Of a stretch of 62,621 bases of DNA, positions 32,583-51,500 are shown piece by piece; within the stretch, counting starts at the first letter, position 1; every line of letters begins with the position of its first letter. Below the pieces are notes generated by a model that was not told the DNA's origin, did no database searches, and saw only the letters and a list, made by a program, of their open reading frames with translations. The translations under genes and the position numbers were made by a program. The stretch is from a bacterium BMS3Abin11. GTDB taxonomy: Bacteria > Pseudomonadota > Gammaproteobacteria > BMS3Bbin11. The stretch is from NCBI GenBank assembly GCA_002897635.1, contig BDTD01000028.1:1-62621 (forward strand), written 5' to 3'.

Positions 32583-33253
32583 TACAGGTGCAGGTACTGG
32601 ATAAAAGCTACACTCTGCCCGGGCAGAGTATACCCGTCCTGAAAAGGCTTTCACTTGAGGTCAATGAGGGGGAGTTTGTCGCCATCATGGGCCCGTCCGG
32701 TACTGGCAAATCTACCTTATTGAATGTCCTTGGCTGTCTTGATGTTGCGGATGCAGGCAGTTATGTGCTGGATCAGGAAGTCATCTCGACCATGGATGAC
32801 TACGCGCTGGCTGACATAAGGAACCGCAAAATCGGGATTATTTTTCAGTCAACGAGCTTCGTCGATTACCTTGATCTGCCTGATAATGTAGCTATGCCGG
32901 GTTTCTATTGTGGCCAGTCACGCGAACACAGCCGACGACGCGCGATTGAATTACTGCAGCAGGTTGGACTGGGACACAGACTGAAGCATCGGCCCGGTCA
33001 GTTGTCCGGTGGCGAATGTCAGCGTGTCGCCATCGCCCGTGCCCTGTTTAATCACCCCCGTTTATTGCTGGCAGATGAACCAACAGGCAATCTGGACAGT
33101 AAAAATTCTACTGAAATTGTCAGGCTGCTGAAGCGGCTGAATACACTGGGTTTGACTATCGTTTTGATCACACACGATAGCGAGGTCGCGAGTGCCGCCG
33201 ACAGGATCTATCGCATGCAGGATGGGGAGCTGACTAGCGATTTCGATGATTAG
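32579..33253 (+). CDS. MacB/LolD-type ABC ATPase, exporter 1
   Basis: 224 residues. Walker A GPSGTGKST near 39, Q-loop IIFQSTSF near 91, signature [15 protein letters not shown] near 141, Walker B LLLADEPTGNLDS near 160, H-loop LITHDSEVA near 198, all intact. The GECQ in the signature is a small deviation from GQQQ/GEQQ. It powers the permease encoded immediately downstream (8-bp overlap). Split ATPase and permease genes, rather than a fused MacB, occur in exporters of peptides, lipids and RND-independent efflux. Confidence 0.92.
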   Translation: MIQVQVLDKSYTLPGQSIPVLKRLSLEVNEGEFVAIMGPSGTGKSTLLNVLGCLDVADAGSYVLDQEVISTMDDYALADIRNRKIGIIFQSTSFVDYLDLPDNVAMPGFYCGQSREHSRRRAIELLQQVGLGHRLKHRPGQLSGGECQRVAIARALFNHPRLLLADEPTGNLDSKNSTEIVRLLKRLNTLGLTIVLITHDSEVASAADRIYRMQDGELTSDFDD

Positions 33254-34494: not shown

Positions 34495-36381
34495 ATGAGG
34501 GCAAGTATTTTACCCTTACTGCTGATTATCGGCTGGGCTACCCCGATGCAATCACAATCCGGTTTAGTCCAAAATGGTGTGTTCGAAATCGTCAATCAGG
34601 GTTTTAGCCATCATGAATTAATTGACTCCGTCCAGGTGCTGATCGATCCAGAAGGGCAATTGTCATTCAACGATATCCAGTCCCCCCCTTATCGGGATCA
34701 GTTCAGGTCCCTTGCCAAAACCGGCAACTCATTCGGGATAAATAAAAATAATTATTGGTTTCGGGTGAATATTCAGTTTACCGATAGTGCTAAGGGCATC
34801 TATTACCTTGAGGTGGGTTCACCATTGTTGAACGAGATCACGGCTTACCTCCCCAATGGTGACGGTACGTGGCAAACGAATACTGCTGGTGACACTATCC
34901 CGTATTCGGCACGGATAATCGACCATCAACACATTGCCTATCCGCTCCACGTCACCACTACCGCACCACAGCAGATATATTTCAATGTAACAGGCGGTGG
35001 GGCAAAAACAGTGCCGTTTTATTTATGGAACAGCACTGAGTTTAATCGGCATGAAAACAGGGAGCATATGTTTACTGGTATCACAACCGGAGCATTGTTT
35101 GCTCTGGTTCTCTACAATGCTTTTCTCTTTGTGTCGCTCAAGGATACCACCTACCTGTGGTATGTCGGCTATCTTACTTTTATTGCACTCTTCTTGCTGA
35201 ATTATTCAGGAATGGCATACAGGTATCTATGGCCAAGTCTGTATGGGTGGGCTAACCTCGCAGGGCTAGTATTTCTATTTTTGGCCATGGGGTTCGGCTT
35301 ATTGTTTGCCAGAAATATATTGAACATACATCAGCTGTCCTCACGTTTTTCGGTCGTGTTAATCCTATCGGCCGCAGTGAGTTTCCTGCTCGCATTTCTA
35401 ACACAAGTTATTGACACAACCCTCCTTTCAACCATTGCCATCGCCATGGCACTCTACGTCATTGCTATATCTTTACATGCTATTGTATTTTCAATTAAAT
35501 CAGGGTATACGCCAGCTTTATATGTCCTCTTTGCATTTGTTAGCCTGATTCCAGGAGTAATTATTTCGTTACTCAGGAATATTGGTATGATGGACTCAAG
35601 TTTTTTGTCCGAACATATGATCTCTGTCGGTTTTATATCGGATGCAATTTTATTATCCTTAGCACTCGCATACAGAATTCGCTATACCAATAAAAAGATG
35701 GACATGCTTAAGGAGGATGTGGTCAAACAAAAGGAGGGATTTTCCCATAAACTGGTAAATGCTCAGGACAATGAGCGAAAATATATCGCTAGTGAATTGC
35801 ATGATGGTTTAGGGCAAAACCTGATAGTCATCAAGAATAAGATCAGTCGATATTTTAAAAGTAGTGATAAAGCTAATGGAGATATTGGCCAGGCCCTGGA
35901 TCAACTCATCCAGGACACCATAGATTTAGTGCGAGGCCTGTCATCTCAATTGTACCCACACCAACTAGAACGGATAGGCCTTAAATCAGCGTTAGATAAT
36001 GTGATTGAATCAAGCTTTTATGATTCTAATATTGAAGTTGATTATCAGATTGATGAGCTGGGAGAAAATATTGATTCCCATACACAACTACACCTGTATC
36101 GCATTTGCCAGGAGGGAATAAAAAATATCCTGACTCATGCCAGCGCCAGCCTGGCATCTATAAGATTAGATAAAATCGAGGATAAGGTAAGGTTGAAAAT
36201 TATGGATAATGGCCAGGGCGTTGCATCATCATGGTTAAATCAGGAGGATTTCAGCGCTTCATTTGGTCTAAATAGTATTAAAGAACGAGTACAACTACTT
36301 AGGGGAAATACAGTATATAGTACTAGTGAAGAGGGTGGATTCACGATTTTGGTAGAGATACCATTACGGCGTGATGCTTAA
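34495..36381 (+). CDS. 7TMR-DISM sensor histidine kinase
   Basis: 628 residues. Signal peptide (residues 1 to about 20), an extracellular beta domain of the 7TMR-DISMED2 type (about 25-180, with NNYWFRVNIQFTDSAKGIYYLEV), seven membrane helices (about 192-396), then the NarX/LytS-like kinase core: HisKA_3 with His436 in ASELHDGLGQNL, N box CQEGIKNIL and G box MDNGQGV of the ATPase domain. Such receptors often sense carbohydrate or cell-surface ligands. The response-regulator gene overlaps it by 8 bp. Located between exporter 1 and the surface-protein genes, it is the likely regulator of this cluster. Confidence 0.9.
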   Translation: MRASILPLLLIIGWATPMQSQSGLVQNGVFEIVNQGFSHHELIDSVQVLIDPEGQLSFNDIQSPPYRDQFRSLAKTGNSFGINKNNYWFRVNIQFTDSAKGIYYLEVGSPLLNEITAYLPNGDGTWQTNTAGDTIPYSARIIDHQHIAYPLHVTTTAPQQIYFNVTGGGAKTVPFYLWNSTEFNRHENREHMFTGITTGALFALVLYNAFLFVSLKDTTYLWYVGYLTFIALFLLNYSGMAYRYLWPSLYGWANLAGLVFLFLAMGFGLLFARNILNIHQLSSRFSVVLILSAAVSFLLAFLTQVIDTTLLSTIAIAMALYVIAISLHAIVFSIKSGYTPALYVLFAFVSLIPGVIISLLRNIGMMDSSFLSEHMISVGFISDAILLSLALAYRIRYTNKKMDMLKEDVVKQKEGFSHKLVNAQDNERKYIASELHDGLGQNLIVIKNKISRYFKSSDKANGDIGQALDQLIQDTIDLVRGLSSQLYPHQLERIGLKSALDNVIESSFYDSNIEVDYQIDELGENIDSHTQLHLYRICQEGIKNILTHASASLASIRLDKIEDKVRLKIMDNGQGVASSWLNQEDFSASFGLNSIKERVQLLRGNTVYSTSEEGGFTILVEIPLRRDA

Positions 36382-37021
36382 GGAGAAAGTAACCATAGTG
36401 CTGGCAGATGACCATCCTATCTTTAGGCGTGGACTGGTTGATACGTTGGAAGACGCTGAAGCCTATCATGTAGTGGGCGAAGCGGGTGACGGGAATGAGG
36501 CAATTGCTCTAATTACCCGTCTTAAGCCCCACATCGCTATTCTTGATATTTCTATGCCGCAACGTGATGGTCTGGATGTGCTGGTTAAGGCGCAGCACTG
36601 GGCCAGTCCGCCGATTTTTGTCATACTGACATTGTATGATGATGAATCTTATCTCAAAAAGGCACTTGAGTACGGCGCTAAAGGTTATCTGTTAAAAGAT
36701 AATGCGGAAACCGAGTTGATAACTTGCCTTGATATGGTGTCAATCGGTAAAACTTACCTTTCTCCCGGGGTCGCCTGGCGACTGGTGGAGGGAACCGAGC
36801 AGTCACATGATTCACTTGAACAGCTGTCGACGGCAGAACGCAGGATTTTTACCCTGGTGTCTGAATTTAAAACCAATGCAGAAATCGCAGAATTATTGTC
36901 AGTGAGTATTCGTACGGTTCAGAACCATCGTTCAAACATATGTAAAAAATTCGGTTTAAGTGGTGCCCATGCACTGACACAGTTCGCAGCCCGCTTTTCG
37001 GACTCTACAGGCGCAAATTAA
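36374..37021 (+). CDS. NarL/LuxR-family response regulator
   Basis: 215 residues. Receiver with Asp58 in IAILDISMPQRDGLDVL, conserved LADDHPIFRRGL at the N-terminus and Lys in GYLLKDNAE. The C-terminal LuxR-type helix-turn-helix (about 150-208) has LSVSIRTVQNHRSNICKKFG. ATG 36374 is preceded directly by GTG 36371; either may start. Cognate partner of the adjacent HisKA_3 kinase by overlap and type. The following 267 bp contain inverted CTACTTA/TAAGTAG motifs which could be its binding sites (inference). Confidence 0.92.
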   Translation: MLKEKVTIVLADDHPIFRRGLVDTLEDAEAYHVVGEAGDGNEAIALITRLKPHIAILDISMPQRDGLDVLVKAQHWASPPIFVILTLYDDESYLKKALEYGAKGYLLKDNAETELITCLDMVSIGKTYLSPGVAWRLVEGTEQSHDSLEQLSTAERRIFTLVSEFKTNAEIAELLSVSIRTVQNHRSNICKKFGLSGAHALTQFAARFSDSTGAN

Positions 37022-37288: not shown

Positions 37289-38434
37289 ATGTATACACAC
37301 ACTATTCTGAAAAAGATTTCACACTGCCTGCTGATTTCTTGTTTTTTTGTTGCAGCATCCTTAAGCGGAGCCGCGTTCGCGGAAGTGAAAATTGACCATA
37401 AGCCGGTAAAGGATTCTACATCGGGCAAGAGAATTGATTTGTCTGCAAAGTTTAAAGACAAGTCGGCAGGAATCAGCAAGGCATTTGCCTATTTTAATTC
37501 TGACCTTGATACGCTCTGGCATTCAGTGCCTATGTCGGGCGATGGAAATAAATACAGCGGCCAACTGCCTGCACCTGATATTTATACCAGTTTTATCAAT
37601 TACCGCTTTCTGGTCGTCAATGAAAAAGACCAGATACAGGCAGGTGAAGTTTACACGATCGCGATAAAAAAGGATGAGAAGGCACTGGCACGGCTGCAGA
37701 GAAAACCACCGACAGATGTCAAGATTGACGTGTCTGAGATTCAAGATGCGAAAGACATGGCGGATAAGATAAAACGGGAAAGGATAAGCTCGAAAGATCA
37801 GAAAAAGGAGGCGAACCAAAGTACACGTCCGAATCCGGGATCCCGAGTAAAGGTTTTGTCTGAATATAAGCCGAGCATAGATTCACTGAAAGGATTCAGG
37901 GACTATGTGAATTTGTACTATACCCCAAAGGCATATGGCGCGACTGCAGGTATTATTGATCCGTCAGCGACGGTTTCTGGTGCCGGTGCAGGAACTTATA
38001 CAGGAGCCGCAGCTGCTGGTGGCGGGGGTGTGAGTACCGGTGTGCTGCTGGGCGGGTTGGCCGTTGCCGGTGGTGCTGCCGTTGCCGCAGGAGCTTCTGG
38101 TGGCGATAGCGGGGGTAGTAGCGGAGGTGGCCCCACTGGTTCAGTCTGTAGTACCGCAAATGCCTCAGGCAGAGACGCGCCACAAACAATTACAGTAGAT
38201 CTAGGGAAGACTTCGGGGACCTTTGGGTTTTCATGGAATATGGTTAGCATAAAGGACCGAATGGTTTTGACCACATCCACATTAACGCCTCTATTTGATA
38301 CTGGCTGTGTCAGCGGCAGTGGTTCGGTAAGTATTCCCTTCACTGATTCTTCAGGAAAAATACGGGTAACCGTCCAACCAAATTGCGCGGGTGGTAGCGG
38401 TACCGCATGGAGTTTCAAGGTACGGTGTCCTTAA
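37289..38434 (+). CDS. Exported glycine-rich linker protein with C-terminal beta domain
   Basis: 381 residues; family not recognised. Signal peptide to about residue 31 (LLISCFFVAASLSGAAFA). An N-terminal Ig/fibronectin-like domain (about 32-140, FNSDLDTLWHSVPMSGDGNK). A charged helical linker (150-190, Lys/Asp/Glu/Arg). A Gly/Ala hydrophobic stretch (about 240-265, VLLGGLAVAGGAAVAAGA). A Gly/Ser linker. A C-terminal beta domain (288-381) holding four cysteines that could form two disulfides. The design parallels the 28750 gene. Good ribosome-binding site (GGGAGAA). It starts the surface part of the cluster and is a candidate substrate for the CsgG-like pore or ABC exporters (inference). Confidence 0.7.
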   Translation: MYTHTILKKISHCLLISCFFVAASLSGAAFAEVKIDHKPVKDSTSGKRIDLSAKFKDKSAGISKAFAYFNSDLDTLWHSVPMSGDGNKYSGQLPAPDIYTSFINYRFLVVNEKDQIQAGEVYTIAIKKDEKALARLQRKPPTDVKIDVSEIQDAKDMADKIKRERISSKDQKKEANQSTRPNPGSRVKVLSEYKPSIDSLKGFRDYVNLYYTPKAYGATAGIIDPSATVSGAGAGTYTGAAAAGGGGVSTGVLLGGLAVAGGAAVAAGASGGDSGGSSGGGPTGSVCSTANASGRDAPQTITVDLGKTSGTFGFSWNMVSIKDRMVLTTSTLTPLFDTGCVSGSGSVSIPFTDSSGKIRVTVQPNCAGGSGTAWSFKVRCP

Positions 38435-38633: not shown

Positions 38634-39638
38634 ATGAAAGCATTCTTCACCAGAATAGCCGTGGCATTATTTATTGCAGCAGTTGTTTCACCCTCCTATG
38701 CGGCGGACTGCGATCCGGACTTTGATTCTGATTGTGAGCATAACGTTTCAAGCCAGGCCAGCCGTATTGCAAGCTACCCCAGTTATCATGGACCGAAACA
38801 GGTGGTAGCGGTGCTGCCGTTTGCAAACAGAGTTAAAAATGTCTATGGCTCGTGGCAACTTGGTGAAGGCCTGGCAGAGATTCTGGTCACTGAGCTGGTT
38901 AAATCCGGTCGTTTTTTAGTTGTGGAGCGGGAATCTATTCGAGGCATCATTTCGGAGCAGGAATTAGGCCTGTCTGGATTGGTCAGAAAAGAGACGGCAG
39001 TAAAAACCGGCCAGATGTCAGGTGCTCAATTCTATATCAAGGGTGCGATAACCGAATTTAACGATCAGGCAGGTGGTGGTGGGATAACGTTGGGGTTCAA
39101 GGGTGGTGAAGTTGGTGGCAAGACGCGCACCGCCTACGTCGGCATTGATGTACGCATAGTCGATAATACCACCGGCCAGATTTATGCCTCATACAATGCC
39201 TCTGCCAAAGCGCGTAGCACGGGTGCCTCGCTGTCAACCAACCTGACTAATTTTGGCGATCTCTATAAGCTTGGGGCCTCCGGATTTAATAGCACCGCAT
39301 TGGGGGTAGCTACACGTAAGGCAGTTCAGAAGATCATGGGCTTCATTCTGGCCGAGAGCAAGAACATCCCCTGGCAGGGTTCAATTATCAAGGCCGGGTC
39401 GAAAGTCTATCTTAACCGCGGCGACAGTGCCGGGGTAAAAAATGGTGACAGACTGGCTGTCTATTCAAAAGGCGAGGCGCTGATTGACCCGGAAACCGGG
39501 TTTAACCTGGGTTCAGACGAACGCCTAATCTGCTCAGTTTTCATAGTGCAATCCCGACCCAAATTTTCCATTGCCAGGATGACGCCAGACTGCCAGGGCC
39601 AGGGTATTAAGCGTGGCGACATTGTGCGTTATCAGTAA
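38634..39638 (+). CDS. CsgG/HfaB-family outer-membrane secretion protein candidate
   Basis: 334 residues. ATG 38634 is chosen because it gives a clean signal peptide (MKAFFTRIAVALFIAAVVSP then SYA) after GGGGGA; ATG 38544 would bury it. The region VVAVLPFANRVKN...WQLGEGLAEILVTELVKSGRF followed by VVERESIRGIISEQELGLSG is the CsgG-family core, and the GAQFYIKGAITEFN and AYVGIDVRIVDNTTGQI segments complete it. CsgG makes the nonameric pore that exports curli subunits. Unlike E. coli CsgG it lacks a lipobox (AADC instead of L-x-x-C). A C-terminal extension (about 250-334) resembles a small beta domain of the FlgT C-terminal type. No csgA, csgB, csgE or csgF homologues are seen nearby. Confidence 0.8.
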   Translation: MKAFFTRIAVALFIAAVVSPSYAADCDPDFDSDCEHNVSSQASRIASYPSYHGPKQVVAVLPFANRVKNVYGSWQLGEGLAEILVTELVKSGRFLVVERESIRGIISEQELGLSGLVRKETAVKTGQMSGAQFYIKGAITEFNDQAGGGGITLGFKGGEVGGKTRTAYVGIDVRIVDNTTGQIYASYNASAKARSTGASLSTNLTNFGDLYKLGASGFNSTALGVATRKAVQKIMGFILAESKNIPWQGSIIKAGSKVYLNRGDSAGVKNGDRLAVYSKGEALIDPETGFNLGSDERLICSVFIVQSRPKFSIARMTPDCQGQGIKRGDIVRYQ

Positions 39639-39659
39639 TAGGCTGAGTGAAGGGTGATA

Positions 39660-40106
39660 ATGAAAAGTATTTCTAAGGTGTTGGTTGTTTTGGCATCTCT
39701 GACTGTTCTTATGACAGGTGCAGTAGCACAGGCAGGTGAGCAGACAAAGGAGATCAGTGAGGTGCCGGTCACCGCAACGCCCAGTGCGGAACAGTTGCGG
39801 CAGGCGATGTTGCTGGGCATGCAGTACCAGGCGATGATGTATCCGCCGGATCGGAGTTACCAGGGTTACCCGATCCCCTGGGCCTATACCTATCGCCCAG
39901 GGGTAGTCATCCCGTCACCTTCACAATATGCGAACTGTTATCCGACTGGCCCATACAGCAGCTATTGCAGGCAGACATACCCGGCCTATCGCAATTATCC
40001 GGCTTATCCCCCCACCTATCCCTGGCCGGTCAACAAATATGCCTATCCGCCATTTCCGTCAGACCGTCCGGACTACAACACACATAAGCAACACCGGAGA
40101 CATTAG
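39660..40106 (+). CDS. Small secreted Pro/Tyr-rich protein
   Basis: 148 residues; not recognised. Signal peptide (KVLVVLASLTVLMTGAVAQA), a short helix (AEQLRQAMLLGMQYQAMM), then about 95 residues dominated by Pro, Tyr and aromatic repeats (YPAYRNYPAYPPTYPWPV) with two cysteines, and a basic HKQHRRH tail. ATG 39660 is preferred over GTG 39654. Its stop codon directly abuts the next start codon, so it is translated together with the two neighbours. Such Tyr/Pro-rich proteins can be surface or matrix components (family-level inference). Confidence 0.6.
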   Translation: MKSISKVLVVLASLTVLMTGAVAQAGEQTKEISEVPVTATPSAEQLRQAMLLGMQYQAMMYPPDRSYQGYPIPWAYTYRPGVVIPSPSQYANCYPTGPYSSYCRQTYPAYRNYPAYPPTYPWPVNKYAYPPFPSDRPDYNTHKQHRRH

Positions 40107-40988
40107 ATGAGAATTTCCAATGCAAGACATAAATTAACCAGCAGAGCCATCTTTACCCTGCTGATTCTTGCATTGTCGAGCCTGGGGAATCCTTTGCTCG
40201 CACAAGTAAACACCCTTGGTAAACCAAAAATCATGATAATCATGCAGGAAAAGGTGATGGGTGTTTTTGGTACGACTGGCTGGGAGTCACCCGGACAGGT
40301 GGAAATCACCCTGGCTGAAAAATTTCGCGCACTGGGATACCCCGTGATGGACCCGAACACGGTACGTCGTAATGTGAAACAGTCTGTCGCCTTGCGTATG
40401 CTGGAGGGTGACAACGCCAGTGCAGCAGCAGAAGCCAACAAGATGGGCGCACAAATAACCATTATCGGTACTGCAATTAGTAAACCCGGAGGAGCAAAGC
40501 TATACGGCACACAAATGCAATCGATACAGGCCACCATCACCGCACGTGTAGTGCAAAATGATGACGCCCGGATAATCGCCAGTGGAACCGCGACGGCCTC
40601 AAAAGTCCATATCGATGAAGTTCAGGGTGGTGTGCTGGCACTGGAAGAGGCAGCAACAGAGCTTGCAGAAAAGTTAATTCCAATGATTAATGCGAAGGTA
40701 GATAAAACACAGTATGGGGAAGGGAATCTTCTGACGCTTAATATCAGTAATCTGCAACATTATCCTCACCTTGATTTAATTTTATATTTTTTTGAAACAT
40801 CGGTGGACGGCGTATCACAGGTGTATATGCGTGACTATAAGAACAGTGTGGCGGATATAGGATTGATGTATTCAGGTCAGTCAACAGAACTGGCAAGAAA
40901 AATCTCTGAAGCGACATTTCCGGGTTTTAGTCTACTGGCTACAAACGTTACTGCTAACCGGATGGATCTGGTGGTGGTACTAAAATAG
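40107..40988 (+). CDS. Exported CsgG/FlgT-like protein
   Basis: 293 residues. Signal peptide (IFTLLILALSSLGNPLLAQ, to about 32). A first alpha-beta domain (about 38-200) has ITLAEKFRALGYPVMDPNTV and KMGAQITIIGTAI, the pattern of TolB-N/CsgG or FlgT-middle folds. A second domain (about 205-293) reads as a beta-alpha-beta-beta-alpha-beta unit (LTLNISNLQHYPHLDLIL ... RMDLVVVL). Probably periplasmic or outer-membrane associated. It sits 2 bp before the giant YD-repeat gene and immediately after the Pro/Tyr-rich gene, so likely part of the same assembly. Family assignment is tentative. Confidence 0.6.
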   Translation: MRISNARHKLTSRAIFTLLILALSSLGNPLLAQVNTLGKPKIMIIMQEKVMGVFGTTGWESPGQVEITLAEKFRALGYPVMDPNTVRRNVKQSVALRMLEGDNASAAAEANKMGAQITIIGTAISKPGGAKLYGTQMQSIQATITARVVQNDDARIIASGTATASKVHIDEVQGGVLALEEAATELAEKLIPMINAKVDKTQYGEGNLLTLNISNLQHYPHLDLILYFFETSVDGVSQVYMRDYKNSVADIGLMYSGQSTELARKISEATFPGFSLLATNVTANRMDLVVVLK

Positions 40989-40990
40989 CG

Positions 40991-43900
40991 ATGAACAGGA
41001 TGAGAAAATCCCGACAACTTTTCAAGATGATAAGAGGCAGTTTGTTTCTTTCAGTGATGTACGGTTTGTCACTTATCTATGGAATTTCAAATGCCTCAAT
41101 TTTATCTGATGTTGAATCACGCCCACTTATCTCACCCGGTTTTTATGACATGTATCCTGGAAAAGTTGATGTCGGTGGAGTTGCAAGCATCACACTGCCA
41201 TCACGGGCGTTATTGTTGGAACAAAATGATATCAGCATCAGAGGTATTGGTTCACCAATCGCTATAAAACGAGTTTACCGGTCTGACAGAAAGAACAACG
41301 GTCCGTTCAGTGATGGCTGGGCGATTGCCGGACTGCCTTCATTATTGCCCGGTGAGGATAATATCGTTTTGATTACCGCCTACGGGATTTTAGTGTTTGC
41401 TAAAAATAAGGCGGGGGAATTTAGTGGGGATAATGGGCTGACCATTCAGCGCGAGAGCACAGGGTATCTTTTACAGGCTGTGGATCGAAGCCAGATCAGG
41501 TTTTCTAAAACAGGTCAGATCACTAGCAAGCAGGATGCAAATAAAAACCGCATAAGCTTTAGCTACGATAATGACCGATTGGTTGAAATTGTAGACAATG
41601 GTTCTTCGCGGTATCTTCGGATCAGCTACAACAAAGCAGGAAAGATATCCGATATTCAGGATAATTCAGGCCGAAGAATCAACTACAAATATAATAATAA
41701 CGGCCTGCTTAACGAAGTGATTTTACCGGGCCTTGAGAAAATATCATATCGCTATGAGGCAGGAAAACTGACTGTAGTGTCGCATCGTGGTCGCTCAGAG
41801 CTAAATATTCGTTACGATGAACCTGATATTGGTGTTATCCGACGGGTAGATTATGGGAATGAACAATGGTTGGAGTTCAAAACCCTCGCCAACAGGAACG
41901 GGTTATCTGTAGAAATTAAGGACAGCCGGAATAATCTGTTTCAGCAATCTTTTTCTGAAGAGAAAGATGGTATCAAAGTGGTGTCTAGCGGTCAGAATGG
42001 GTGGCGGGCTGAGTATCTTTTTACAACAGGTTTTAAATTAAGAGAGGCGCGCTTAGCAGATGGATATTCGTTGTCAAAGCAGTACGATAAGCTTGGTAGA
42101 TTAACTTCTGTGCAGGACAACCGCGGTAGAAATATCGTTCTGGGCTATAAGGGAAAGTCACTTGCCCCGGTTTCTGTCAAAGATCGGCAAGCTGGGGATC
42201 TCAACATACAATATGATGAGAACAGCAATATCCAGTCGATCAAAAAGAATAACAGGCACATATCCTACCAGTATTCTAAGGCGGGGAAAATACTTTCCGT
42301 CTCTGTGAATAAGAAAAAGCTGGCATCATACCGTTACGATAAATCAGGTAACAAAATCGAAGATAAGCGCGAGAACTACCTACCAATACGTACAGCCTAT
42401 GACAGCCTTGGACGGTTAGAATCAGAGAGGAGCGATTACAGACATGAGCGCCTTTTTCGGTACGATAGATCAGACCGAATATCAAGAATAAGTAGCGGCA
42501 AAGAAGGCTGGATAAGTTTTGATTTCTCCTCTGATGCATTGCTTAAGTCAATCGTTAGTGCCAGGGGCAATAAAATATCCTATCAATACGACAACTATGA
42601 GCGCCCCGTTTCGACCATTCTGCCAGATGGCACCCGATATAAAAGGCAGTACAGTTATGATGGTGCCAGGCAAATAGTTGACACCTTATTTCCCGATGGT
42701 AAGAAGACGAAATTAACACGTGATCAGCTGTATCGCCCACTAGAATTTATTGACTCTATGGGTAACCGCTATCAATATGAATGGACCCGCGGAGGACAGC
42801 CGAAAAAAATTGTCTTTTCAGATAAATCTTATGTTGTAAATAGCTACGATAAAACTGGAAGACTAGTTAAATCACGGTATTCTGATGGTACGGAAGAAAC
42901 GTACCGCTATAAGGGGACCCGGTTGTCTCAAATGACAACGGCAGATTTTAAGCTGGGCTACCATTACCAACAGGGAAACATTAACCCTGTCGGGTATACG
43001 GATAATAAAACCGGTATCAAGATAGCGGTGGAATACTCAGAGAACAATAAATTAAAGTCAATTAACATACCGAAAGTTGGAAAAATACAGTACCAGTATA
43101 ACCGTCATGGACAGATGGAATCTGTCACGGATACGCGTGGCAGGAAATTTGTATACCTCTACAATAAAGGCGGACAAGTATCTCAGATTATATACCCGAA
43201 CAAGGTAAAGCAGGCGGTTTCAGTTAATAAGGCGACAGGTAATATCGATTCGATTGAGGTATCCAGTCAATCATCCGTGTTACTCAAACGCAAGTATTCT
43301 TATCAGGGAAATCAATTTATTGCCGGTTATGAAGATGAGAATGACAGTAGCGTTAAGTATAAGTATAGTGCCAATGATGAGCTGATTGAGGCGACGTACC
43401 GCGCGGCAAAAGACAAAGAAAATATACGATACCAGTATGATCCCAATGGCAATTTATCGGAAGAAGAAAGCAATGGACGCGTGACGCGCTATCAGTATAA
43501 CGGCATTGGTAATCTGTCCAGTAAAGATGATAAAAAATTTCGATATGATCAGCGTGGAAACCTGATAGAAATTGATAGCCTGGGTCAGAAAACAATCTTT
43601 CGCTACTCTATTGCAAATAAACTGACAGAGGTGGTTCTGCCCGATGGCGAGAAAAAGGAATATCGTTATGATCCCTTAGGGCGTCTTGTCTACATAAAGC
43701 ACAGGGATAAGATCACACGCATTCTATGGAATGGCGACCATCGCTTACTGGAAGTGGATGGTGAAGGTAAGATCAATAAAATTTTTATCTACGGGCAGGG
43801 CGTTGACCGCCTGCTGGCTATTATTGAGAATGGCAGTGCGCAATATTTCCATCAAGACATAAACAGTAGCACCATTCTGGTGACAGATGAGAAAGGAAGC

Positions 43901-46864
43901 ACGCTATCACGACCTCAATATGGCCCGTATGGCGAGATACGTAATAAGCAATTCGCGGCGGAAAATTACTGGTTCTCCGGGCGACCCTATGACCCTGTTC
44001 TCAATGCGTATTATTTACGCGCACGCTATTACTTTCCTGATCTGAAGCGATTTGGTAGTCGTGACACCGTCTCCGGTGATATGACTGTGCCAAGAATGAT
44101 GAATCCTTATTTGTATGCATTAAATAATCCGGTCAATGCCAGTGATCCGGGAGGAACTATATTTCTGGAACTCGCAGCAACTGGAGTTATTGCGGTGCTT
44201 ACTGGCGGGGTAATCGTATACAAAGTCGCTCAGGCAATAGGTGGTGGTGCAGGTTTTTCGAGTGTACGAGATCGAGGAGTAGACAATTATCAGGCAGCAG
44301 ATGTTAAAGGTAGCACTGAACGACTCGGCCGTGCCGTCCGTGAGATCCAGTCACATGTTAATAATCTTGGTGGTACCAGCACGTTGTTTGACACAGGGCT
44401 GGCACCCAAAAATAAGGCGCTTGGTTTTGCTCTTACTGCGGCCGCGAGATTGGGTGTATCACCCATACCCGTGTCAAATACACCAGCGGATTTAGTGCTT
44501 AACTCGAATATTGTTGATGTGGCATCGCGGCCTGATCTCAGCGGTAGCCAGCAACTTGCGCAGAGTGCAGCGCATTTGTTAAATGAAGGAACAAATCAAT
44601 TGTCCACAGGACTGTTCGTCGGGCTAATGAATACTGGGGTGCTGCGGTCTTTGCCTGGCATGGCTAAAGATACCCTGAAAGGTGCGGGTAGCTTTATTGC
44701 ACGTACTGGCACTTACATAGGAACCTCCCTGAGTTCAGTTGTACGCCAGGCAGCACAGGCGGCGACTACGCCCGGAGCAAGGCAAGCGGCGCAAACAGCA
44801 GCAGCAACAGCAGCAGGCACAGCATTGAGTGGTGCCGGATCCTCTGCAAACGCGCAGGCAAATGAAGCTGCTGCCATTACGAAGGCAGCGGTCGATCGCT
44901 TTCGGGGTGAGGTGATCGCGCTGAAAAATCGCTGTACTGCACTGGACACACTACGCGCCGAGCGACGCACGAAACTTGAAGATGCGAAACGTCTGGCGAG
45001 TGAAATCAAAGCGGCGGTTTCAGATAGAAACAATGCTTCTGGCAGGTTTCTCCAATGTACCGGACTTAAACAGTATGCCGATAGATTAGTGGCCAGAGTG
45101 GCTGCCATTGCCCCAAAGGCTGCACAGGGAAACCAGGGGGCACGCTCACTTCTACAGCGTTGCAACAAGGAAAGCGACCTGGATAATGCTGCTAAGCTGC
45201 AGCGTTTAAGTGGATCATTAGCGAAAGAGGCAGCATCTGCCTACCAGCGACTTTCTGCTGTTTTAACCGGTCAACTGGCGCAAGAGCAGGACAAGGCGCG
45301 TGCAGATTTAGCTAAAATAGAAGCTGTTAAAGCCAAGTTGAATCTGGCAAAAGTTAAGTCGGTAACAGTGCGGAATTATCAGGATTCAGCCAGGGCCATT
45401 GCTGCCAGAGTAGGTGAGTTGAAGAGCAGTTGCAGTAATACCTATTCTTATCTGTCACAGGAGATCCGGAAAAGAGCAGGAATTACGGGTGATGCCGGGT
45501 TCAAGGCTTTGCTTGCAAAGCTGGCAGGGATAGAAGCGACAATCAATACCCGGGAGTATAACCCGAGTTTAGCCGGCAACGTTGATGCCCTGATCAATCA
45601 GGCTAATGATTTTATGGCTGAACTGCCGGGGAAAGAAGCTGCTCTTAACGAGTGTATTTCTTACGACGTCGTCTCCCCGTTGCTGCAGGCCCAGGTCCAG
45701 ATGGCACAAATAAAAAATGTCAGCTCGTGGGACAGTGAAATTGCCAGCCTGAGAGGGCAGTGCCGTACCCGGCTGGATGCTGCAAATGCCGCTGCGGATA
45801 AAGACCAGAAACCTGACACAGAGGGTACAGAATTTGAGCCGCCACGGGGCCAGGGCACAGACTGTAGTTTTCGTGGTAGAGATGGCAAGTGCATGGACGA
45901 TGTTATTGGTGGTACGCCTCGTGGTGTGGGCGTTGGCGGTACACCTGTCGTTGTAACCCCGACAGGAGGGGGCGCGGGGCAGCCACCTGAACAGGATTCG
46001 ACTACCGGCCAGTCAGGGACTGGAACCGCATTCGGCGACTACGGTACAGATCCGCGCGAGCGGGAGCGTCAGTCTAACCAGAGGGCCGAAAACCAGGCCG
46101 ATATTAACCGCGCACAAGGGAGGATGGGGCCAGATGGCCGACCACTGCCTGGTGGTGGTCGTCCCGGTTCTGATATTGCTACATCGTTTGGCACACCAAC
46201 CTTACCTGATGACCCAGTGATTAATGAGCCTGCACCTACAGCAGGTCAAGCACCTTCAGAAACCAGCGACAACACCATAGCCGGTACCGGGAAGCCCCAG
46301 GCAGGCGGGTCAGGCGGCACTGCTGGCAGGCAATCATCCTCAGGAATGATCCCTGGTACCAACAGATCCGGCAAGCCTGCCGCCAGATCCGGTAAGCCTA
46401 CATCGACGAGGCGGGCTGGTGGCAGTAATTCTGCCGCCTGTCGGTCAGCATTCAACGCTTTGTTAACGCATACAAGACAGGCCGCTTCGGTGATCAGTAA
46501 GGGTTGTGGGCAATTCGTTTCCTTTCAAAAAAGAAGCTACAGTTTATTATCTGCTTATGAAAAATCCTGTGGTAGAGCAGCCAAAGGAAAGGATATTTTA
46601 CTTAGGCAGGTCACTCAAATGAAGAAACTTTGCCGCAGTGCAGGGAGTAGCTCGGGTGGCAAGCCAGTTAAACCGAGAAAGCCAGTTAAACCGAGAAAAC
46701 CAGTTAAACCACGCAGACTAGCACCTCCCCCGGTTGTTAAATGTGGCAAAGATCAGAAGAAAGTGAAAAGTGGAAATACCTACACCTGTAGTGATTTACC
46801 ATGTCCAAAAGGTCGGCCAAGAATGTTCGCGGGCTGGGGTTGTGGGAGCTTGTATGGTAACTAG
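40991..46864 (+). CDS. Giant YD-repeat/RHS-type exported protein with unusual C-terminus
   Basis: 1957 residues. Signal peptide (about 13-36, MIRGSLFLSVMYGLSLIYGI). An N-terminal RHS-type domain (VDVGGVASITLPSRALLLEQ...AIKRVYRSD) is followed by many YD repeats (about 150-990, such as YQYDPNGNLSEE), which form a beta-shell in RHS and Tc toxins. The RHS core-associated motif (NAYYLRARYYFPDLKRFGSR, LYALNNPVNASDPGG) lies near 1010-1055. The last 900 residues are not a typical toxin domain: a hydrophobic segment (about 1057-1085), Ala-rich helical coiled-coil region with scattered cysteines (about 1295-1600), Gly/Pro/Ser low-complexity (1600-1815), a Cys-rich end with three KPVKPR repeats. No immunity gene follows. 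Likely surface or secreted. Confidence 0.85.
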   Translation: MNRMRKSRQLFKMIRGSLFLSVMYGLSLIYGISNASILSDVESRPLISPGFYDMYPGKVDVGGVASITLPSRALLLEQNDISIRGIGSPIAIKRVYRSDRKNNGPFSDGWAIAGLPSLLPGEDNIVLITAYGILVFAKNKAGEFSGDNGLTIQRESTGYLLQAVDRSQIRFSKTGQITSKQDANKNRISFSYDNDRLVEIVDNGSSRYLRISYNKAGKISDIQDNSGRRINYKYNNNGLLNEVILPGLEKISYRYEAGKLTVVSHRGRSELNIRYDEPDIGVIRRVDYGNEQWLEFKTLANRNGLSVEIKDSRNNLFQQSFSEEKDGIKVVSSGQNGWRAEYLFTTGFKLREARLADGYSLSKQYDKLGRLTSVQDNRGRNIVLGYKGKSLAPVSVKDRQAGDLNIQYDENSNIQSIKKNNRHISYQYSKAGKILSVSVNKKKLASYRYDKSGNKIEDKRENYLPIRTAYDSLGRLESERSDYRHERLFRYDRSDRISRISSGKEGWISFDFSSDALLKSIVSARGNKISYQYDNYERPVSTILPDGTRYKRQYSYDGARQIVDTLFPDGKKTKLTRDQLYRPLEFIDSMGNRYQYEWTRGGQPKKIVFSDKSYVVNSYDKTGRLVKSRYSDGTEETYRYKGTRLSQMTTADFKLGYHYQQGNINPVGYTDNKTGIKIAVEYSENNKLKSINIPKVGKIQYQYNRHGQMESVTDTRGRKFVYLYNKGGQVSQIIYPNKVKQAVSVNKATGNIDSIEVSSQSSVLLKRKYSYQGNQFIAGYEDENDSSVKYKYSANDELIEATYRAAKDKENIRYQYDPNGNLSEEESNGRVTRYQYNGIGNLSSKDDKKFRYDQRGNLIEIDSLGQKTIFRYSIANKLTEVVLPDGEKKEYRYDPLGRLVYIKHRDKITRILWNGDHRLLEVDGEGKINKIFIYGQGVDRLLAIIENGSAQYFHQDINSSTILVTDEKGSTLSRPQYGPYGEIRNKQFAAENYWFSGRPYDPVLNAYYLRARYYFPDLKRFGSRDTVSGDMTVPRMMNPYLYALNNPVNASDPGGTIFLELAATGVIAVLTGGVIVYKVAQAIGGGAGFSSVRDRGVDNYQAADVKGSTERLGRAVREIQSHVNNLGGTSTLFDTGLAPKNKALGFALTAAARLGVSPIPVSNTPADLVLNSNIVDVASRPDLSGSQQLAQSAAHLLNEGTNQLSTGLFVGLMNTGVLRSLPGMAKDTLKGAGSFIARTGTYIGTSLSSVVRQAAQAATTPGARQAAQTAAATAAGTALSGAGSSANAQANEAAAITKAAVDRFRGEVIALKNRCTALDTLRAERRTKLEDAKRLASEIKAAVSDRNNASGRFLQCTGLKQYADRLVARVAAIAPKAAQGNQGARSLLQRCNKESDLDNAAKLQRLSGSLAKEAASAYQRLSAVLTGQLAQEQDKARADLAKIEAVKAKLNLAKVKSVTVRNYQDSARAIAARVGELKSSCSNTYSYLSQEIRKRAGITGDAGFKALLAKLAGIEATINTREYNPSLAGNVDALINQANDFMAELPGKEAALNECISYDVVSPLLQAQVQMAQIKNVSSWDSEIASLRGQCRTRLDAANAAADKDQKPDTEGTEFEPPRGQGTDCSFRGRDGKCMDDVIGGTPRGVGVGGTPVVVTPTGGGAGQPPEQDSTTGQSGTGTAFGDYGTDPRERERQSNQRAENQADINRAQGRMGPDGRPLPGGGRPGSDIATSFGTPTLPDDPVINEPAPTAGQAPSETSDNTIAGTGKPQAGGSGGTAGRQSSSGMIPGTNRSGKPAARSGKPTSTRRAGGSNSAACRSAFNALLTHTRQAASVISKGCGQFVSFQKRSYSLLSAYEKSCGRAAKGKDILLRQVTQMKKLCRSAGSSSGGKPVKPRKPVKPRKPVKPRRLAPPPVVKCGKDQKKVKSGNTYTCSDLPCPKGRPRMFAGWGCGSLYGN
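46661..46714 (+). repeat. Three 18-bp tandem repeats encoding KPVKPR
   Basis: Units at 46661-46678, 46679-46696 and 46697-46714. The first two are identical; the third has changed at a few bases. They give a basic Pro-rich stretch near the C-terminus of the YD-repeat protein. Copy number could vary by slippage. Confidence 0.9.
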
Positions 46865-46932: not shown

Positions 46933-48381
46933 GTGAATTTTGTGGTATCTAAAATGTATGCTCGAAAAAGGTACTCTAAAATTGGCCAATCTATATTGGC
47001 GGTTGGCGTGGCGTGTACTTTTGGCTTTTCTACACCAGCCTGGGCCGAAATGATCCTGGATCTGGAACAGGCTATCGCTCTGGTTTTGAAACAGAACCGC
47101 TCTGTCAGGCAGTCCTCAGACCGTCTCGGGCTGGATGCGAATTCTATCGTAGCCGTGCAGTCAGATTTCAAAACTCAAATCTCTCCAGACGCCATTATTG
47201 GCGTACAGAATGGCAAGGATGCCAGCAGTTACGGTTTTAAGGTTGTACGCCGGTTTTATAATGGAACAGAACTGGTAACACGCATCGCCAATGAAAAATT
47301 TGGCAGTGATGACGGGCGTAGCAACCGTGTTTCAGTTGAATGGCGGCAGCCACTGTTGGCGAATGCCGGCAGGCTGGTAAACGAGGAACCGCTTGTACGG
47401 GCGCAGCAAAGCAGCCTCAGCAACCGGCGCTCATATGAGTTGACGCGTGTCAGTGTGGTTCTGCAAGTGATATCGCTGTACTACGAAATGATACGTTTAC
47501 AGCAGCAAACGCGTGCGGATAAAAAAACCATTGATCGATTGACTGCCTTATTTAAGGCGAGCAAGGCAAAAGAATCGCTGGGGTGGACGACGCGCGTGGA
47601 TACCTTACGTGTTGAATTACAGCTGAGTGAGGCGCGGAGTCGGCAGAATAGCAATCAGGATCTGCTCCGCAGTGCTGCACGGCAATTTTCTGAGATCCTG
47701 GCTATGCCACTGAATACGACGTTTAAGCTAAAACCCCCGCCTACATTTGAGCTGGAAATTACAGATGAGAAGCTTGCGATTAAGACGGCCCTGAAGAACC
47801 GCCTCGATTTTGCCCAGGTGCTACAGGATTTTGAGGATGCAAACCGTGGCGTAAAAATTGCTAAAAAGCGACTAAAACCCGCACTGCAACTGGTTACAAG
47901 GTACACCCGGGCTGATGATTTTGTGTTTTTCGATAATAGCCTGGGGAGCAATAATCGCTGGTCCTTGCAGCTTACCAGCAATACTGATTTTCACCGGCGT
48001 AGGGAAAAAGCAGAATTCCGAAACGCCAGCATTGAAGAGGATGCTGCCTCACAGGCGATTGAAATTGCGCGTCAGTCCATTATCCGTGAGGTGCGTGATC
48101 GACTGACCAGTTATCGTTTAAATCGACGTAATTTAACATTGGCTGAAAGCAGTTATGATCGGGCGGAATCACGTTTGAAACTGGCCCGGCGCCTGTTTGA
48201 TATAGGCCGCGAAACACAGTTTACCGTCAGTGATGCTGAGGAGGCATTTTTGCAGACTGAGAACCAGCTGCTGCTCAATCAGGCACGGGTTTCGGTCTCA
48301 GGCTATCAGGCGCTGGAGGCTATGGGGCTGTTGATAGAAACCCCGAAGGAGTTAAGGCCGGATGTCTATCCGCGCATATAA
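46933..48381 (+). CDS. TolC-family outer-membrane channel, exporter 2
   Basis: 482 residues. GTG start supported by AGGAAG seven bases upstream; ATG 46954 is an alternative. Signal peptide (ILAVGVACTFGFSTPAWA, to about 38). Mature protein has the OEP pattern: LDLEQAIALVLKQNRSVRQS at the start and RLFDIGRETQFTVSDAEEAF near the end. Similar in plan to the TolC at 29707 (for example SVEWRQPLLANAG versus QYTRPLFSDPERSG), so the two exporters look like paralogues. Overlaps the next adaptor by 20 bp. 68 bp after the YD-repeat gene. Confidence 0.88.
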   Translation: MNFVVSKMYARKRYSKIGQSILAVGVACTFGFSTPAWAEMILDLEQAIALVLKQNRSVRQSSDRLGLDANSIVAVQSDFKTQISPDAIIGVQNGKDASSYGFKVVRRFYNGTELVTRIANEKFGSDDGRSNRVSVEWRQPLLANAGRLVNEEPLVRAQQSSLSNRRSYELTRVSVVLQVISLYYEMIRLQQQTRADKKTIDRLTALFKASKAKESLGWTTRVDTLRVELQLSEARSRQNSNQDLLRSAARQFSEILAMPLNTTFKLKPPPTFELEITDEKLAIKTALKNRLDFAQVLQDFEDANRGVKIAKKRLKPALQLVTRYTRADDFVFFDNSLGSNNRWSLQLTSNTDFHRRREKAEFRNASIEEDAASQAIEIARQSIIREVRDRLTSYRLNRRNLTLAESSYDRAESRLKLARRLFDIGRETQFTVSDAEEAFLQTENQLLLNQARVSVSGYQALEAMGLLIETPKELRPDVYPRI

Positions 48382-49606
48382 ACTGCTTAGAATCGCGCTG
48401 GTTACTGTCGTCTTGACAGCCCTTGTTCTGTTGATGCTGACAGTCGATATCAGGGTCAGCACTTCGACGGCAATGGCAAAGCCTGTGGTGATGGTCGAGA
48501 CAGGTCCACTGGAAGTCTGGTCAAATTATTCAGGTGAGATCAATTCACAGCGCGTCACCGTTATTATGTCTAAAATGCTTGGTAGATCGACAATTACCGA
48601 GCTGGAAGAAGAAGGCAAGCAAGTTGAAAAAGGCGATGTGCTGGCTCGTTTTGATTCTGCAGAAATAGAGCAAACCATCATTAAGCTTGAGCGTGAGCAT
48701 ACTCTGGCCAGCACCAGTCTGGATAGCCTGATCAATGCTAAAATTCCGATGGAACTCGAAGAGCTTTCGTCAAAAATGCTGGAGCTCAAAGGACGTTTAT
48801 CATATGAACAGGCCTATCTGGCAGACAGCAGACGCCTACTGAAAGAAAAAATTGTCTCACCGCAGGAAGTACAGAAGCAGCAAAGTAAAGTTGATCAGCT
48901 CCGAGTAAATTATAAATCTGTCAGTAAGCGTCATCAGCTGACCATTGATCACCTCAACCCGCTGGCGATAAAACAGGCAACAGCCAAAGTCAGTGCAGCT
49001 GAACAGGAACTGGAAATAGCAAAAAGACAGCTGTCTAATTCAGTTATTTATGCGCCCGCCAGAGGGGTGGTTGTATATAACCCGCTGTATTTTGGAAATG
49101 AATACCGTTCTATCCGGGTGGGTGATCCAGTGTATGCAAATCAGCGATTCATGGTTTTACCGGATATGCAGTTACTGAAAGTAAATTTTTATATTCCGGA
49201 GTCAGAGCTTTCCCGGGTGGGTGACGGCCAGGATGTTCTGGTACGGCCTGTCTCTAATAGTGAAACCCGATTATTGGGAAAGATCACGCATATCGGTACA
49301 GCAGCACAAAAACTGCCCGGCAAGCCTCAGTGGCAACGCTACTTCCAGGTTACTGTGTCGATAGAGCAAAGTGAAAACGAAGTGCGTCCCGGCATGTCTG
49401 TCGTGGTACACGTACGTTCCTATAACAATCAGAATGCAATAAGGATTCCCCGGCGGGTCGTTAACTGGGATGGAAAATTACCTTTTGTTTATCTTGAACA
49501 GAACGGAGAGAAGCAGAAAAAAGATATCACACTGGGACAGGCGAATACTGAATACATAGAAGTCATCGGTGGCCTGGTGCCTGGTGACAAGGTGTTTGTA
49601 GAATGA
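48362..49606 (+). CDS. HlyD-family adaptor, exporter 2
   Basis: 414 residues. N-terminal membrane helix (about 7-29, RIALVTVVLTALVLLMLTVD). Lipoyl half near EEEGKQVEKGDVLARFDSAE, long coiled-coil (about 95-225), second half near VIYAPARGVVVYNPL, barrel with FYIPESELSRVGDGQDVLVR. The fit to exporter 1's adaptor is clear in layout. It links the ABC permease to the TolC channel. ATGA overlap with the ATPase gene. Confidence 0.88.
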   Translation: MSIRAYKLLRIALVTVVLTALVLLMLTVDIRVSTSTAMAKPVVMVETGPLEVWSNYSGEINSQRVTVIMSKMLGRSTITELEEEGKQVEKGDVLARFDSAEIEQTIIKLEREHTLASTSLDSLINAKIPMELEELSSKMLELKGRLSYEQAYLADSRRLLKEKIVSPQEVQKQQSKVDQLRVNYKSVSKRHQLTIDHLNPLAIKQATAKVSAAEQELEIAKRQLSNSVIYAPARGVVVYNPLYFGNEYRSIRVGDPVYANQRFMVLPDMQLLKVNFYIPESELSRVGDGQDVLVRPVSNSETRLLGKITHIGTAAQKLPGKPQWQRYFQVTVSIEQSENEVRPGMSVVVHVRSYNNQNAIRIPRRVVNWDGKLPFVYLEQNGEKQKKDITLGQANTEYIEVIGGLVPGDKVFVE

Positions 49607-50295
49607 ATCCGGTTGAGATGAAGGAGAGCACCGTACTCGAACTTTCAGGGGTGAATAGAGACTTCCCTACTTCATCCGGTTGTGTGCAGGCGTTGAAGCG
49701 GGCTTCCCTTAAGGTAGAGAAGAATGAGTTTATCGCTTTAACAGGCCCTTCAGGATCAGGGAAATCCACATTGTTGAATATTGCTGCTTTGCTGGACACG
49801 CCTACCCGCGGGGGGCGGGTTTTTCTGGGTAAAGATACGGAAGGATTGCATGATGGCGAATTAGCCGACATGAGAAAAGATTCTGTCGGCATGATATTTC
49901 AAAGCTATCATTTATTACCGCACCGGACAGTGCTGGAAAATATACTGTTCCGGTTCAGGTATCTTAAAACACCCGCTGTTCAGGCAAGAAAACTCGCCAT
50001 GGAAGCGATAGAACTGACGGGTTTAAACGACATCATGCATCGTGCAGCCTATTTGCTGTCAGGCGGTGAAATGCAGCGAGCAGCCATTGCCCGTTCTATT
50101 GTTAACCGTCCGGCTTTACTGGTTGCCGATGAGCCGACAGGGAATCTTGACAGAAAATCCACGGAAGGTGTGATGAAGTGCCTGTCAAACCTGAATGAAT
50201 TAGGAACAACCATACTTATGGTGACGCACAATGAAGGCATATTAAATTATTGTACGCGACATATATATTGTAAGGACGGTTATATAGAAGGTTGA
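49603..50295 (+). CDS. MacB/LolD-type ABC ATPase, exporter 2
   Basis: 230 residues. Walker A GPSGSGKST near 46, Q-loop MIFQSYHL near 99, signature LSGGEMQRAAIARSI near 149, Walker B LLVADEPTGNLD near 170, H-loop MVTHNEGI near 206, all present. It overlaps the permease start by 4 bp and follows the adaptor by 4-bp overlap, a compact operon. Substrate not inferable from the ATPase itself. Confidence 0.92.
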   Translation: MNPVEMKESTVLELSGVNRDFPTSSGCVQALKRASLKVEKNEFIALTGPSGSGKSTLLNIAALLDTPTRGGRVFLGKDTEGLHDGELADMRKDSVGMIFQSYHLLPHRTVLENILFRFRYLKTPAVQARKLAMEAIELTGLNDIMHRAAYLLSGGEMQRAAIARSIVNRPALLVADEPTGNLDRKSTEGVMKCLSNLNELGTTILMVTHNEGILNYCTRHIYCKDGYIEG

Positions 50296-51500
50296 ACATG
50301 CTGTATATACCACCAACAATTCTCGACGTCGTTCTGGGTATTCGATCAGATATCGGCCGCTTCCTTATGTCGCTTGGAGCCATAGCTGTCGGCATGTTCT
50401 CACTGGTTATGCTGATTGCTATTACCCGGGGGCTTGATCATCAGGCCGAATCCCTGATTCGTTCACTCGGTGTCAATGTCATCGGTGTGATTAGCCAGCC
50501 ACAGCAGAAAAGCAGCAGTGGTGTTCGAGTCGGTACGGAAACAAGTCGGACGATTGCGGCAGCTTTCCCGGGGATCTCTGTTTCCAATGTGCGCGTGTCA
50601 TCGGCTTCTACCCTCGGAACGGTACAAAAAGTGGAAATTATAGCAACTGATGAGAATTTCCTGGATATACGTCAGTGGGATCTGGTTTCCGGACGTTTCC
50701 TTGACGCTGCGGATCTTCGTTTAAGAGAACGGGTTGCCATCATCAGTGAACAACTGGCCAGTTCATGGGCATGGTCTATCAATAGCATCATTATCCTTGG
50801 TCAGAGTACTTTTAGAGTGGTGGGAATCGTACGCGCGAACACGGGAAATCAGGAAAATATGAATGGCATTGACCAGCATCTATACGGAAACAATATGGTG
50901 ATCGTGCCGATCACACTGCAGCCATACTGGAGTGATCAGTACCTGCAGAATGTCGATGCATTAGACGCCATATATCTCAAGGTCGGTAGCCGTCAGTCAT
51001 TCCCTGTCATCCTGAAAGGCATCAAGCAGATTCTTGATGACCCCGTGTACGATCAAAGCTCAATTACTCTGCTTTCTCCGGACAAACTGGTGGCAGGCAC
51101 ACGCACGTTGCAGAATACGTTAAATATTACTTTGGGATTTTTGGTTGTGCTATCCGTTGGTTTAGGCGGTATGACGATGGTGGGCCTGATGGTGGCGAAT
51201 GTAAGAGAGCGTCGCGCGGAGATCGGCTTGCGGCGGGCGATGGGCGCAAAGAAATGGCAGATTCAGTTTCTGTTTGTCATTGAGTCAATCGTTGTTTCAC
51301 TCTCTGCGCTGGCTGTCGGTTTGCTCATCAGTGCGGGTATTTTATTTATGATCGGTAACCGACTGCCTGTGCCAGTTGTTATCAGTTATTCAGTGTTAGG
51401 CATCCCCGTTATTGTGTCCCTTGCCTCCGGGCTGGTGGCATCCATCTGGCCGGCCTTGCTGGCAAGCAGAATCGAACCTTGTATAGCCCTAAGGCATTAA
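50292..51500 (+). CDS. MacB-type ABC permease, exporter 2
   Basis: 402 residues. N-terminal helix (about 18-42, LMSLGAIAVGMFSLVMLIAI), periplasmic core (about 45-265), then three helices in the FtsX block (about 283-310, 330-355, 370-395) with the ATPase-contact segment VRERRAEIGLRRAMGAKKWQI. It ends the 23-kb cluster; a purine-rich repeat follows and then the convergent LON-domain gene. Confidence 0.9.
   Translation: MNMLYIPPTILDVVLGIRSDIGRFLMSLGAIAVGMFSLVMLIAITRGLDHQAESLIRSLGVNVIGVISQPQQKSSSGVRVGTETSRTIAAAFPGISVSNVRVSSASTLGTVQKVEIIATDENFLDIRQWDLVSGRFLDAADLRLRERVAIISEQLASSWAWSINSIIILGQSTFRVVGIVRANTGNQENMNGIDQHLYGNNMVIVPITLQPYWSDQYLQNVDALDAIYLKVGSRQSFPVILKGIKQILDDPVYDQSSITLLSPDKLVAGTRTLQNTLNITLGFLVVLSVGLGGMTMVGLMVANVRERRAEIGLRRAMGAKKWQIQFLFVIESIVVSLSALAVGLLISAGILFMIGNRLPVPVVISYSVLGIPVIVSLASGLVASIWPALLASRIEPCIALRH

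What the first reader, a model, noticed from the sequence alone, without database searches (positions are those of the whole stretch)
38634..40988. CsgG-family protein without curli partners, coupled to a Pro/Tyr-rich protein and a second CsgG/FlgT-like protein
The CsgG-like gene lacks a lipobox and carries a C-terminal extension. csgA/B/E/F-like genes are absent. The neighbours are a small Tyr/Pro-rich secreted protein and another CsgG/FlgT-like exported protein, with start-stop contacts between them and the YD-repeat gene. This could be a CsgG-derived export route for a new substrate.
Basis: partly seen in the sequence, partly recalled or inferred. Interest (0 to 1): 0.65.

Follow-up and report, generated by a model that had tools for sequence, protein, structure and literature searches.

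The report
CsgG/FlgT-type envelope module beside Rhs protein
A bacterium without curli or flagella carries relatives of the curli pore and of a flagellar ring protein in one gene run with a giant secreted YD-repeat (Rhs) protein, and parts of this arrangement recur in distant bacteria, which suggests a small, uncharacterised cell-envelope system that handles that protein.

Summary
38634-39638 encodes a CsgG-domain protein with a cleavable signal peptide, no lipobox and a C-terminal extension. It is followed by a Pro/Tyr-rich exported protein, a second exported protein and a 1957-aa exported YD-repeat (Rhs) protein, all in contact. The genome has no CsgF, no curlin repeats and no flagellar FlgH.

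Two points that looked odd are ordinary: the extension is a FlgT_C/TsaP-type domain present in about half of gammaproteobacterial matches, and loss of the lipobox recurs. The second protein is FlgT-like without FlgT_N; its model has the TolB/CsgG core and no room for membrane hairpins, so it is soluble. The CsgG protein keeps CsgG-length hairpin segments, but the model does not resolve them; pore formation is undecided.

What is new is a recurrent association. The FlgT_N-less protein was found in only two other genomes, both with the CsgG-FlgT_C protein. In the window genome and a Chromatiales MAG it lies directly before the genome's only Rhs gene. A third genome has the CsgG, Pro/Tyr and FlgT-like genes plus a secreted Rhs stub. 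Best reading: a non-curli, non-flagellar CsgG/FlgT-type envelope complex serving a Sec-exported YD-repeat protein. A pore is possible, not shown.

The parts
38634..39638 (+). P0001: CsgG domain (res. 55-248) plus FlgT_C/TsaP-type domain (res. 256-331), signal peptide, no lipobox
39660..40106 (+). P0002: Pro/Tyr-rich exported protein, 148 aa; 40% identical homologue beside the P0003 homologue in L050
40107..40988 (+). P0003: FlgT-like exported protein without FlgT_N; TolB/CsgG core (38-199) plus C-terminal alpha/beta domain (207-292); no membrane hairpins
40991..46864 (+). Sec-exported YD-repeat (RHS) protein, 1957 aa, the only RHS-repeat gene of the genome; candidate client
46933..51500 (+). 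TolC-type OEP, HlyD-type adaptor, ABC ATPase and MacB-type permease, contiguous with the RHS gene (68-base gap, then overlaps); linked by position only
37289..38434 (+). P0004: exported protein with Gly-rich linker, upstream of P0001; role unknown, possibly same locus

Best explanation
The locus encodes a non-curli, non-flagellar envelope complex built from CsgG/FlgT-type ring proteins and dedicated to a Sec-exported YD-repeat (Rhs) protein. Shown: P0001 is a CsgG domain joined to a FlgT_C-type domain, with CsgG-length hairpin segments. P0003 is a FlgT-like protein that lacks the FlgT_N domain and, by its model, is soluble. P0002-P0003 and P0003-RHS are conserved neighbours in other genomes, and P0001-type and P0003-type proteins co-occur. 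Inferred: P0001 forms a ring at or in the outer membrane. P0003 and P0002 sit on its periplasmic side. The complex anchors, displays or translocates the YD-repeat protein after Sec export. The adjacent TolC/MacB exporter may serve the same product or an unrelated small one.
For: Fold of P0001: Foldseek best hits are FlgT 3w1e (5e-17) and FlgT in the LPHT ring 8z5n (1e-15), then CsgG 4uv2 (4e-9) and GNA1162 (6e-7); VIA Z 20.7 over 262 residues, 3.6 A, to 8z5n and 12.5 to CsgG. Homologues of P0003 carry FlgT_N above the Pfam cut-off (L053, L055). Gene association: G364/L054 has P0001 homologues (43 and 46% identical), the P0002-P0003 pair (40 and 50%) and a secreted RHS stub in one cluster. L052 (Chromatiales Ww483) has the P0003 homologue directly followed by an exported RHS gene and a P0001 orthologue elsewhere in the genome (1e-116). 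In G000 and G751 (the genome of L052) that RHS gene is the only one in the genome. FlgH, CsgF and curlin repeats are absent from all four genomes tested, with positive controls. A stretch of the window RHS C-terminal half resembles the 1607-aa secreted protein of the G364 cluster (E 2e-5, above all 100 shuffles).
Against: Only three genomes carry the FlgT_N-less P0003. In G751 the CsgG gene is not beside the pair, and in G364 the RHS gene is a stub several kb away from P0003. About 20 other CsgG-FlgT_C neighbourhoods show no RHS gene (the search missed the G364 stub, so it is not fully sensitive). AlphaFold confidence for P0001 is modest (pLDDT 69, 5 sequences) and the hairpin segments are unresolved. 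No lipid anchor is predicted, whereas curli CsgG is a lipoprotein.
Confidence: 0.5

Rival explanations
1. P0001 is a true CsgG-type outer-membrane channel that exports a substrate (the YD-repeat protein, the Pro/Tyr protein or P0004), with P0003 as periplasmic accessory in the way CsgE acts for CsgG.
For: Both hairpin segments have CsgG length: TM1 aligns to E. coli CsgG without a gap, TM2 differs by about two residues, and an aromatic residue is conserved at the constriction-loop position. The subfamily-average TM1 pattern alternates (permutation p 0.03). A Sec-exported YD-repeat protein needs a way across the outer membrane if it is to act outside.
Against: No lipobox; hairpins unresolved in the model; single-sequence amphipathicity not significant, though the test also fails on E. 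coli CsgG; the CsgG eyelet is about 12 A (PMC7304575), so a 1957-aa protein would have to pass unfolded.
Confidence: 0.25
2. The proteins are soluble, structural or peptidoglycan-associated factors (FlgT, LpoB or GNA1162-like), and the RHS gene is merely a cargo gene in a variable region of the operon.
For: Best fold matches are FlgT and the LPHT ring; P0003 lacks hairpins; a FlgT_C-type domain occurs in TsaP, a pilus-associated LysM protein; most CsgG-FlgT_C loci have no RHS.
Against: P0003 lies directly 5' of the sole RHS gene in two genomes of different groups; the P0002-P0003 pair, P0001 homologues and an RHS stub lie together in a third.
Confidence: 0.22
3. A diverged flagellar H-ring or curli remnant.
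For: FlgT and CsgG homology.
Against: No FlgH, CsgF or curlin repeats in any of the four genomes; intact, co-directional, conserved genes.
Confidence: 0.03

Closest known systems
CsgG-DUF4810-GNA1162 (DUF799) lipoprotein operon, e.g. L034, L035, L037, L038
   Same: CsgG protein (with FlgT_C-like end in L037/L038), small middle protein, second TolB-fold protein, same order
   Different: Here the proteins are not lipoproteins, P0002 is not DUF4810, P0003 is not hit by the GNA1162 model and has an extra C-terminal domain, and an RHS gene follows
Flagellar H-ring proteins FlgT/FlgO/FlgP
   Same: P0001 has the FlgT middle + C fold; P0003 is FlgT-like; non-flagellar clusters in Nitrospirota and Nitrospinota combine CsgG-FlgT_C and FlgT_N proteins, with LPP20 in L053
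   Different: No FlgH in the genome; FlgT_N lost from P0003; P0001 has CsgG-length hairpin segments
Curli secretion channel CsgG
   Same: CsgG domain, hairpin-length segments, aromatic at the constriction loop
   Different: No lipid anchor, added FlgT_C domain, no curlin repeats or CsgF
TsaP (type IV pilus secretin-associated protein)
   Same: C-terminal domain of P0001
   Different: CsgG domain in place of the LysM domain

Membership tests
Curli secretion system (CsgG) | CsgG domain | tested here: met
   Pfam CsgG 121.5 bits; CsgG structures matched
Curli secretion system (CsgG) | N-terminal lipid anchor | tested here: not met
   SPSYA|ADC, no lipobox
Curli secretion system (CsgG) | Two transmembrane hairpins per subunit | tested here: inconclusive
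   CsgG-length segments, but pLDDT under 50
Curli secretion system (CsgG) | CsgF and curlin-repeat substrates | tested here: not met
   absent genome-wide, E. coli control positive
Curli secretion system (CsgG) | CsgE cap | not tested
   no genome-wide CsgE search was left; no csg gene flanks the locus
Curli secretion system (CsgG) | Nonameric outer-membrane pore | not testable with these tools
   no oligomer modelling
FlgT / flagellar H-ring | FlgT middle and C-terminal fold | tested here: met
   P0001 vs 8z5n chain 0: Z 20.7, 262 residues, 3.6 A
FlgT / flagellar H-ring | FlgT_N domain | tested here: not met
   absent from P0001 and P0003, present in homologues L053 and L055
FlgT / flagellar H-ring | Flagellum in the genome (FlgH) | tested here: not met
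   three control genomes positive
CsgG-DUF4810-GNA1162 operon | CsgG + small protein + second TolB-fold protein in this order | tested here: met
CsgG-DUF4810-GNA1162 operon | Third protein belongs to GNA1162-like (PF05643) | tested here: not met
   no PF05643 match in G000; no match for P0003; profile comparison 1.3% probability
CsgG-DUF4810-GNA1162 operon | Middle protein is DUF4810 | tested here: not met
   P0002 has no Pfam match at E up to 1

The most novel reading that the evidence does not exclude
P0001 with P0003 and P0002 is a CsgG-derived outer-membrane channel or display platform that carries a Sec-exported YD-repeat (Rhs) protein to the cell surface, a route for Rhs proteins separate from type VI secretion.
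Probability: 0.2. Interest if true: 0.85.

Novelty: new variant of a known kind. Interest (0 to 1): 0.5.

Why it matters
How Sec-exported YD-repeat proteins of Gram-negative bacteria reach or cross the outer membrane is, to my knowledge, mostly unexplained. A CsgG/FlgT-type complex tied to such a protein gives a concrete, testable candidate. It also links curli pores, flagellar H-ring proteins and the GNA1162-type operons as variants of one envelope-ring toolkit.

Tried and rejected
Curli: rejected, no CsgF or curlin repeats. Flagellar H-ring: rejected, no FlgH. GNA1162 operon membership: order matches, families do not. Defence system: no PADLOC match. Plasmid spread: no P0003 match on plasmids. 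Single-sequence amphipathicity of the hairpin segments: uninformative, the test also fails on E. coli CsgG. Profile comparison of P0003 with GNA1162 or CsgG alignments, from two P0003 sequences: weak, replaced by structure comparison. Literature: no paper in the searched library holds CsgG together with YD-repeat, and little on the GNA1162 operon.

Full report
OBSERVATION. P0001 (38634-39638) matches Pfam CsgG at 3.8e-35 over residues 55-248. It has a signal peptide ending SPSYA|AD and no lipobox. P0002 (39660-40106) is 32% Pro+Tyr after the signal peptide. P0003 (40107-40988) has no Pfam match above noise. P0002, P0003 and the YD-repeat gene (40991-46864) abut within 0-2 bases. The YD-repeat gene is followed after 68 bases by an OEP/HlyD/ABC/MacB set with overlapping genes, so 38.6-51.5 kb looks like one transcription unit (inference).

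WHAT P0001 IS. The C-terminal extension is a FlgT_C-type domain: weak Pfam FlgT_C (4e-4, below cut-off) and a profile match to TsaP of type IV pili (3jc8, 7e-8) and a LysM-domain chain (6ve2, 2e-6). The AlphaFold model (pLDDT 69, five sequences) is closest to FlgT (3w1e, 5e-17) and to FlgT in the LPHT ring (8z5n, 1e-15), then CsgG, the Chlamydia protein CT253 and GNA1162; VIA Z is 20.7 to 8z5n over 262 residues. That 8z5n chain 0 is FlgT is my reading of its fold and length; the entry title says only 'LPHT ring'. The architecture is common: in 369 genomes of the class, 27 of 50 matches to the P0001 profile reach into the extension (query end 305 or more). Non-lipidated members also recur.

HAIRPINS. 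Against E. coli K-12 CsgG the TM1 segment aligns without gaps and the TM2 segment is within about two residues, while GNA1162-operon CsgG proteins are clearly shorter at TM2; an aromatic residue is conserved where CsgG has its constriction loop (constriction residues Tyr66, Asn70, Phe71 from PMC7304575). The placing of the two hairpins in CsgG rests on my knowledge of the published structure. The subfamily-average TM1 alternates in hydrophobicity (p 0.03), but single sequences mostly do not exceed shuffles, and neither does E. coli CsgG. AlphaFold gives residues 147-162 and 198-213 pLDDT under 50. Pore formation by P0001 is therefore open.

WHAT P0003 IS. Its model (pLDDT 80) has the TolB/FlgT/CsgG core at 38-199 (VIA Z about 10-12 to TolB, FlgT, CsgG, GNA1162), with a 10-residue loop where CsgG has TM1 and no insertion for TM2, plus a C-terminal alpha/beta domain (207-292) that was not searched on its own. 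Homologues in a Nitrospiraceae MAG (L053, 48%) and a Nitrospinota MAG (L055, 30%) carry FlgT_N above the Pfam cut-off. P0003 is thus a FlgT-like protein that lacks FlgT_N, and by its model soluble.

CONSERVED CONTEXT. The genome-collection scan returned five loci. FlgT_N-less close homologues occur in two of them (L052 and L054); the 369-genome class search and the 398-genome phylum search added only more distant relatives. (a) L054, the same contig as G364 (an Ectothiorhodospiraceae MAG, in the window's class): two CsgG-FlgT_C genes (43 and 46% identical to P0001), the P0002-P0003 pair (40 and 50%), a Sec-exported RHS stub (DUF6531 plus one repeat) and very large secreted proteins. Part of the 1607-aa one resembles part of the window RHS C-terminal half (E 2e-5; above all of 100 shuffles). 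(b) L052, a Chromatiales MAG: P0003 homologue directly followed by an exported RHS gene; a P0001 orthologue (1e-116) lies on another contig without P0002 beside it. All RHS_repeat matches of G000 fall in the window gene and all of G751 in this neighbour, so in two genomes the only RHS gene sits directly 3' of P0003. With a few thousand genes per genome, chance adjacency is of order 1e-3 in each (estimate). About 20 other CsgG-FlgT_C neighbourhoods, each up to 10 kb on either side, show no RHS hit, though that search missed the G364 stub, so the link seems to belong to the P0003 subfamily.

NOT CURLI, NOT FLAGELLA. CsgF, curlin repeats and FlgH are absent from G000, G364, G751 and G752, with positive controls. 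CsgG-DUF4810-GNA1162 operons show the same gene order (DUF4810 named from memory of the family), but P0002 and P0003 fail those families. Nitrospirota and Nitrospinota clusters combine CsgG-FlgT_C and FlgT_N proteins without this RHS gene.

MECHANISM. Shown: domain make-up, the predicted fold of P0003, gene order, recurrence, absence of the curli and flagellar markers tested. Inferred: a ring-like envelope complex of P0001 with P0003/P0002 that anchors, displays or translocates the Sec-exported YD-repeat protein. A CsgG-like pore is possible (about one in four); a purely structural role with an unrelated RHS neighbour is the main alternative.

VERDICT. New variant of a known kind; interest 0.5.

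Noticed in passing
window 29683-34451 and 46933-51500: Two OEP-MFP-ABC-MacB exporter sets flank the locus; they are only 21-36% identical to each other, so not a recent duplication.
   Followed up: partly
window 34495-37021: 7TMR-DISM histidine kinase and LuxR-type response regulator lie between the first exporter set and P0004; possible regulator of the locus.
   Followed up: no
L001 1357-2142 (G000:C29): A second, stand-alone non-lipidated CsgG protein (261 aa) in the same genome, shared with genus members.
   Followed up: partly
L007 922-3159 (G000:C4): A FlgT-like protein with FlgT_N (just below Pfam cut-off) followed by an exported 363-aa protein, in a genome without FlgH.
   Followed up: partly
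L050 4262-9085 and L140 12317-16918: Very large secreted proteins (1607 and 1533 aa) in the G364 cluster; the 1607-aa one weakly resembles the window RHS C-terminal half.
   Followed up: partly
L103 10396-12216, L104 10490-12463: Protein-kinase-like proteins with a stretch matching the P0003 profile, directly beside CsgG-FlgT_C genes.
   Followed up: no
L111 7542-10337: A 931-aa protein with several successive CsgG-FlgT_C-type matches, near another CsgG-FlgT_C gene.
   Followed up: no
L055 3479-10756: Nitrospinota cluster with two FlgT_N proteins, a GNA1162-like protein and CsgG-FlgT_C, i.e. the two gene arrangements merged.
   Followed up: partly
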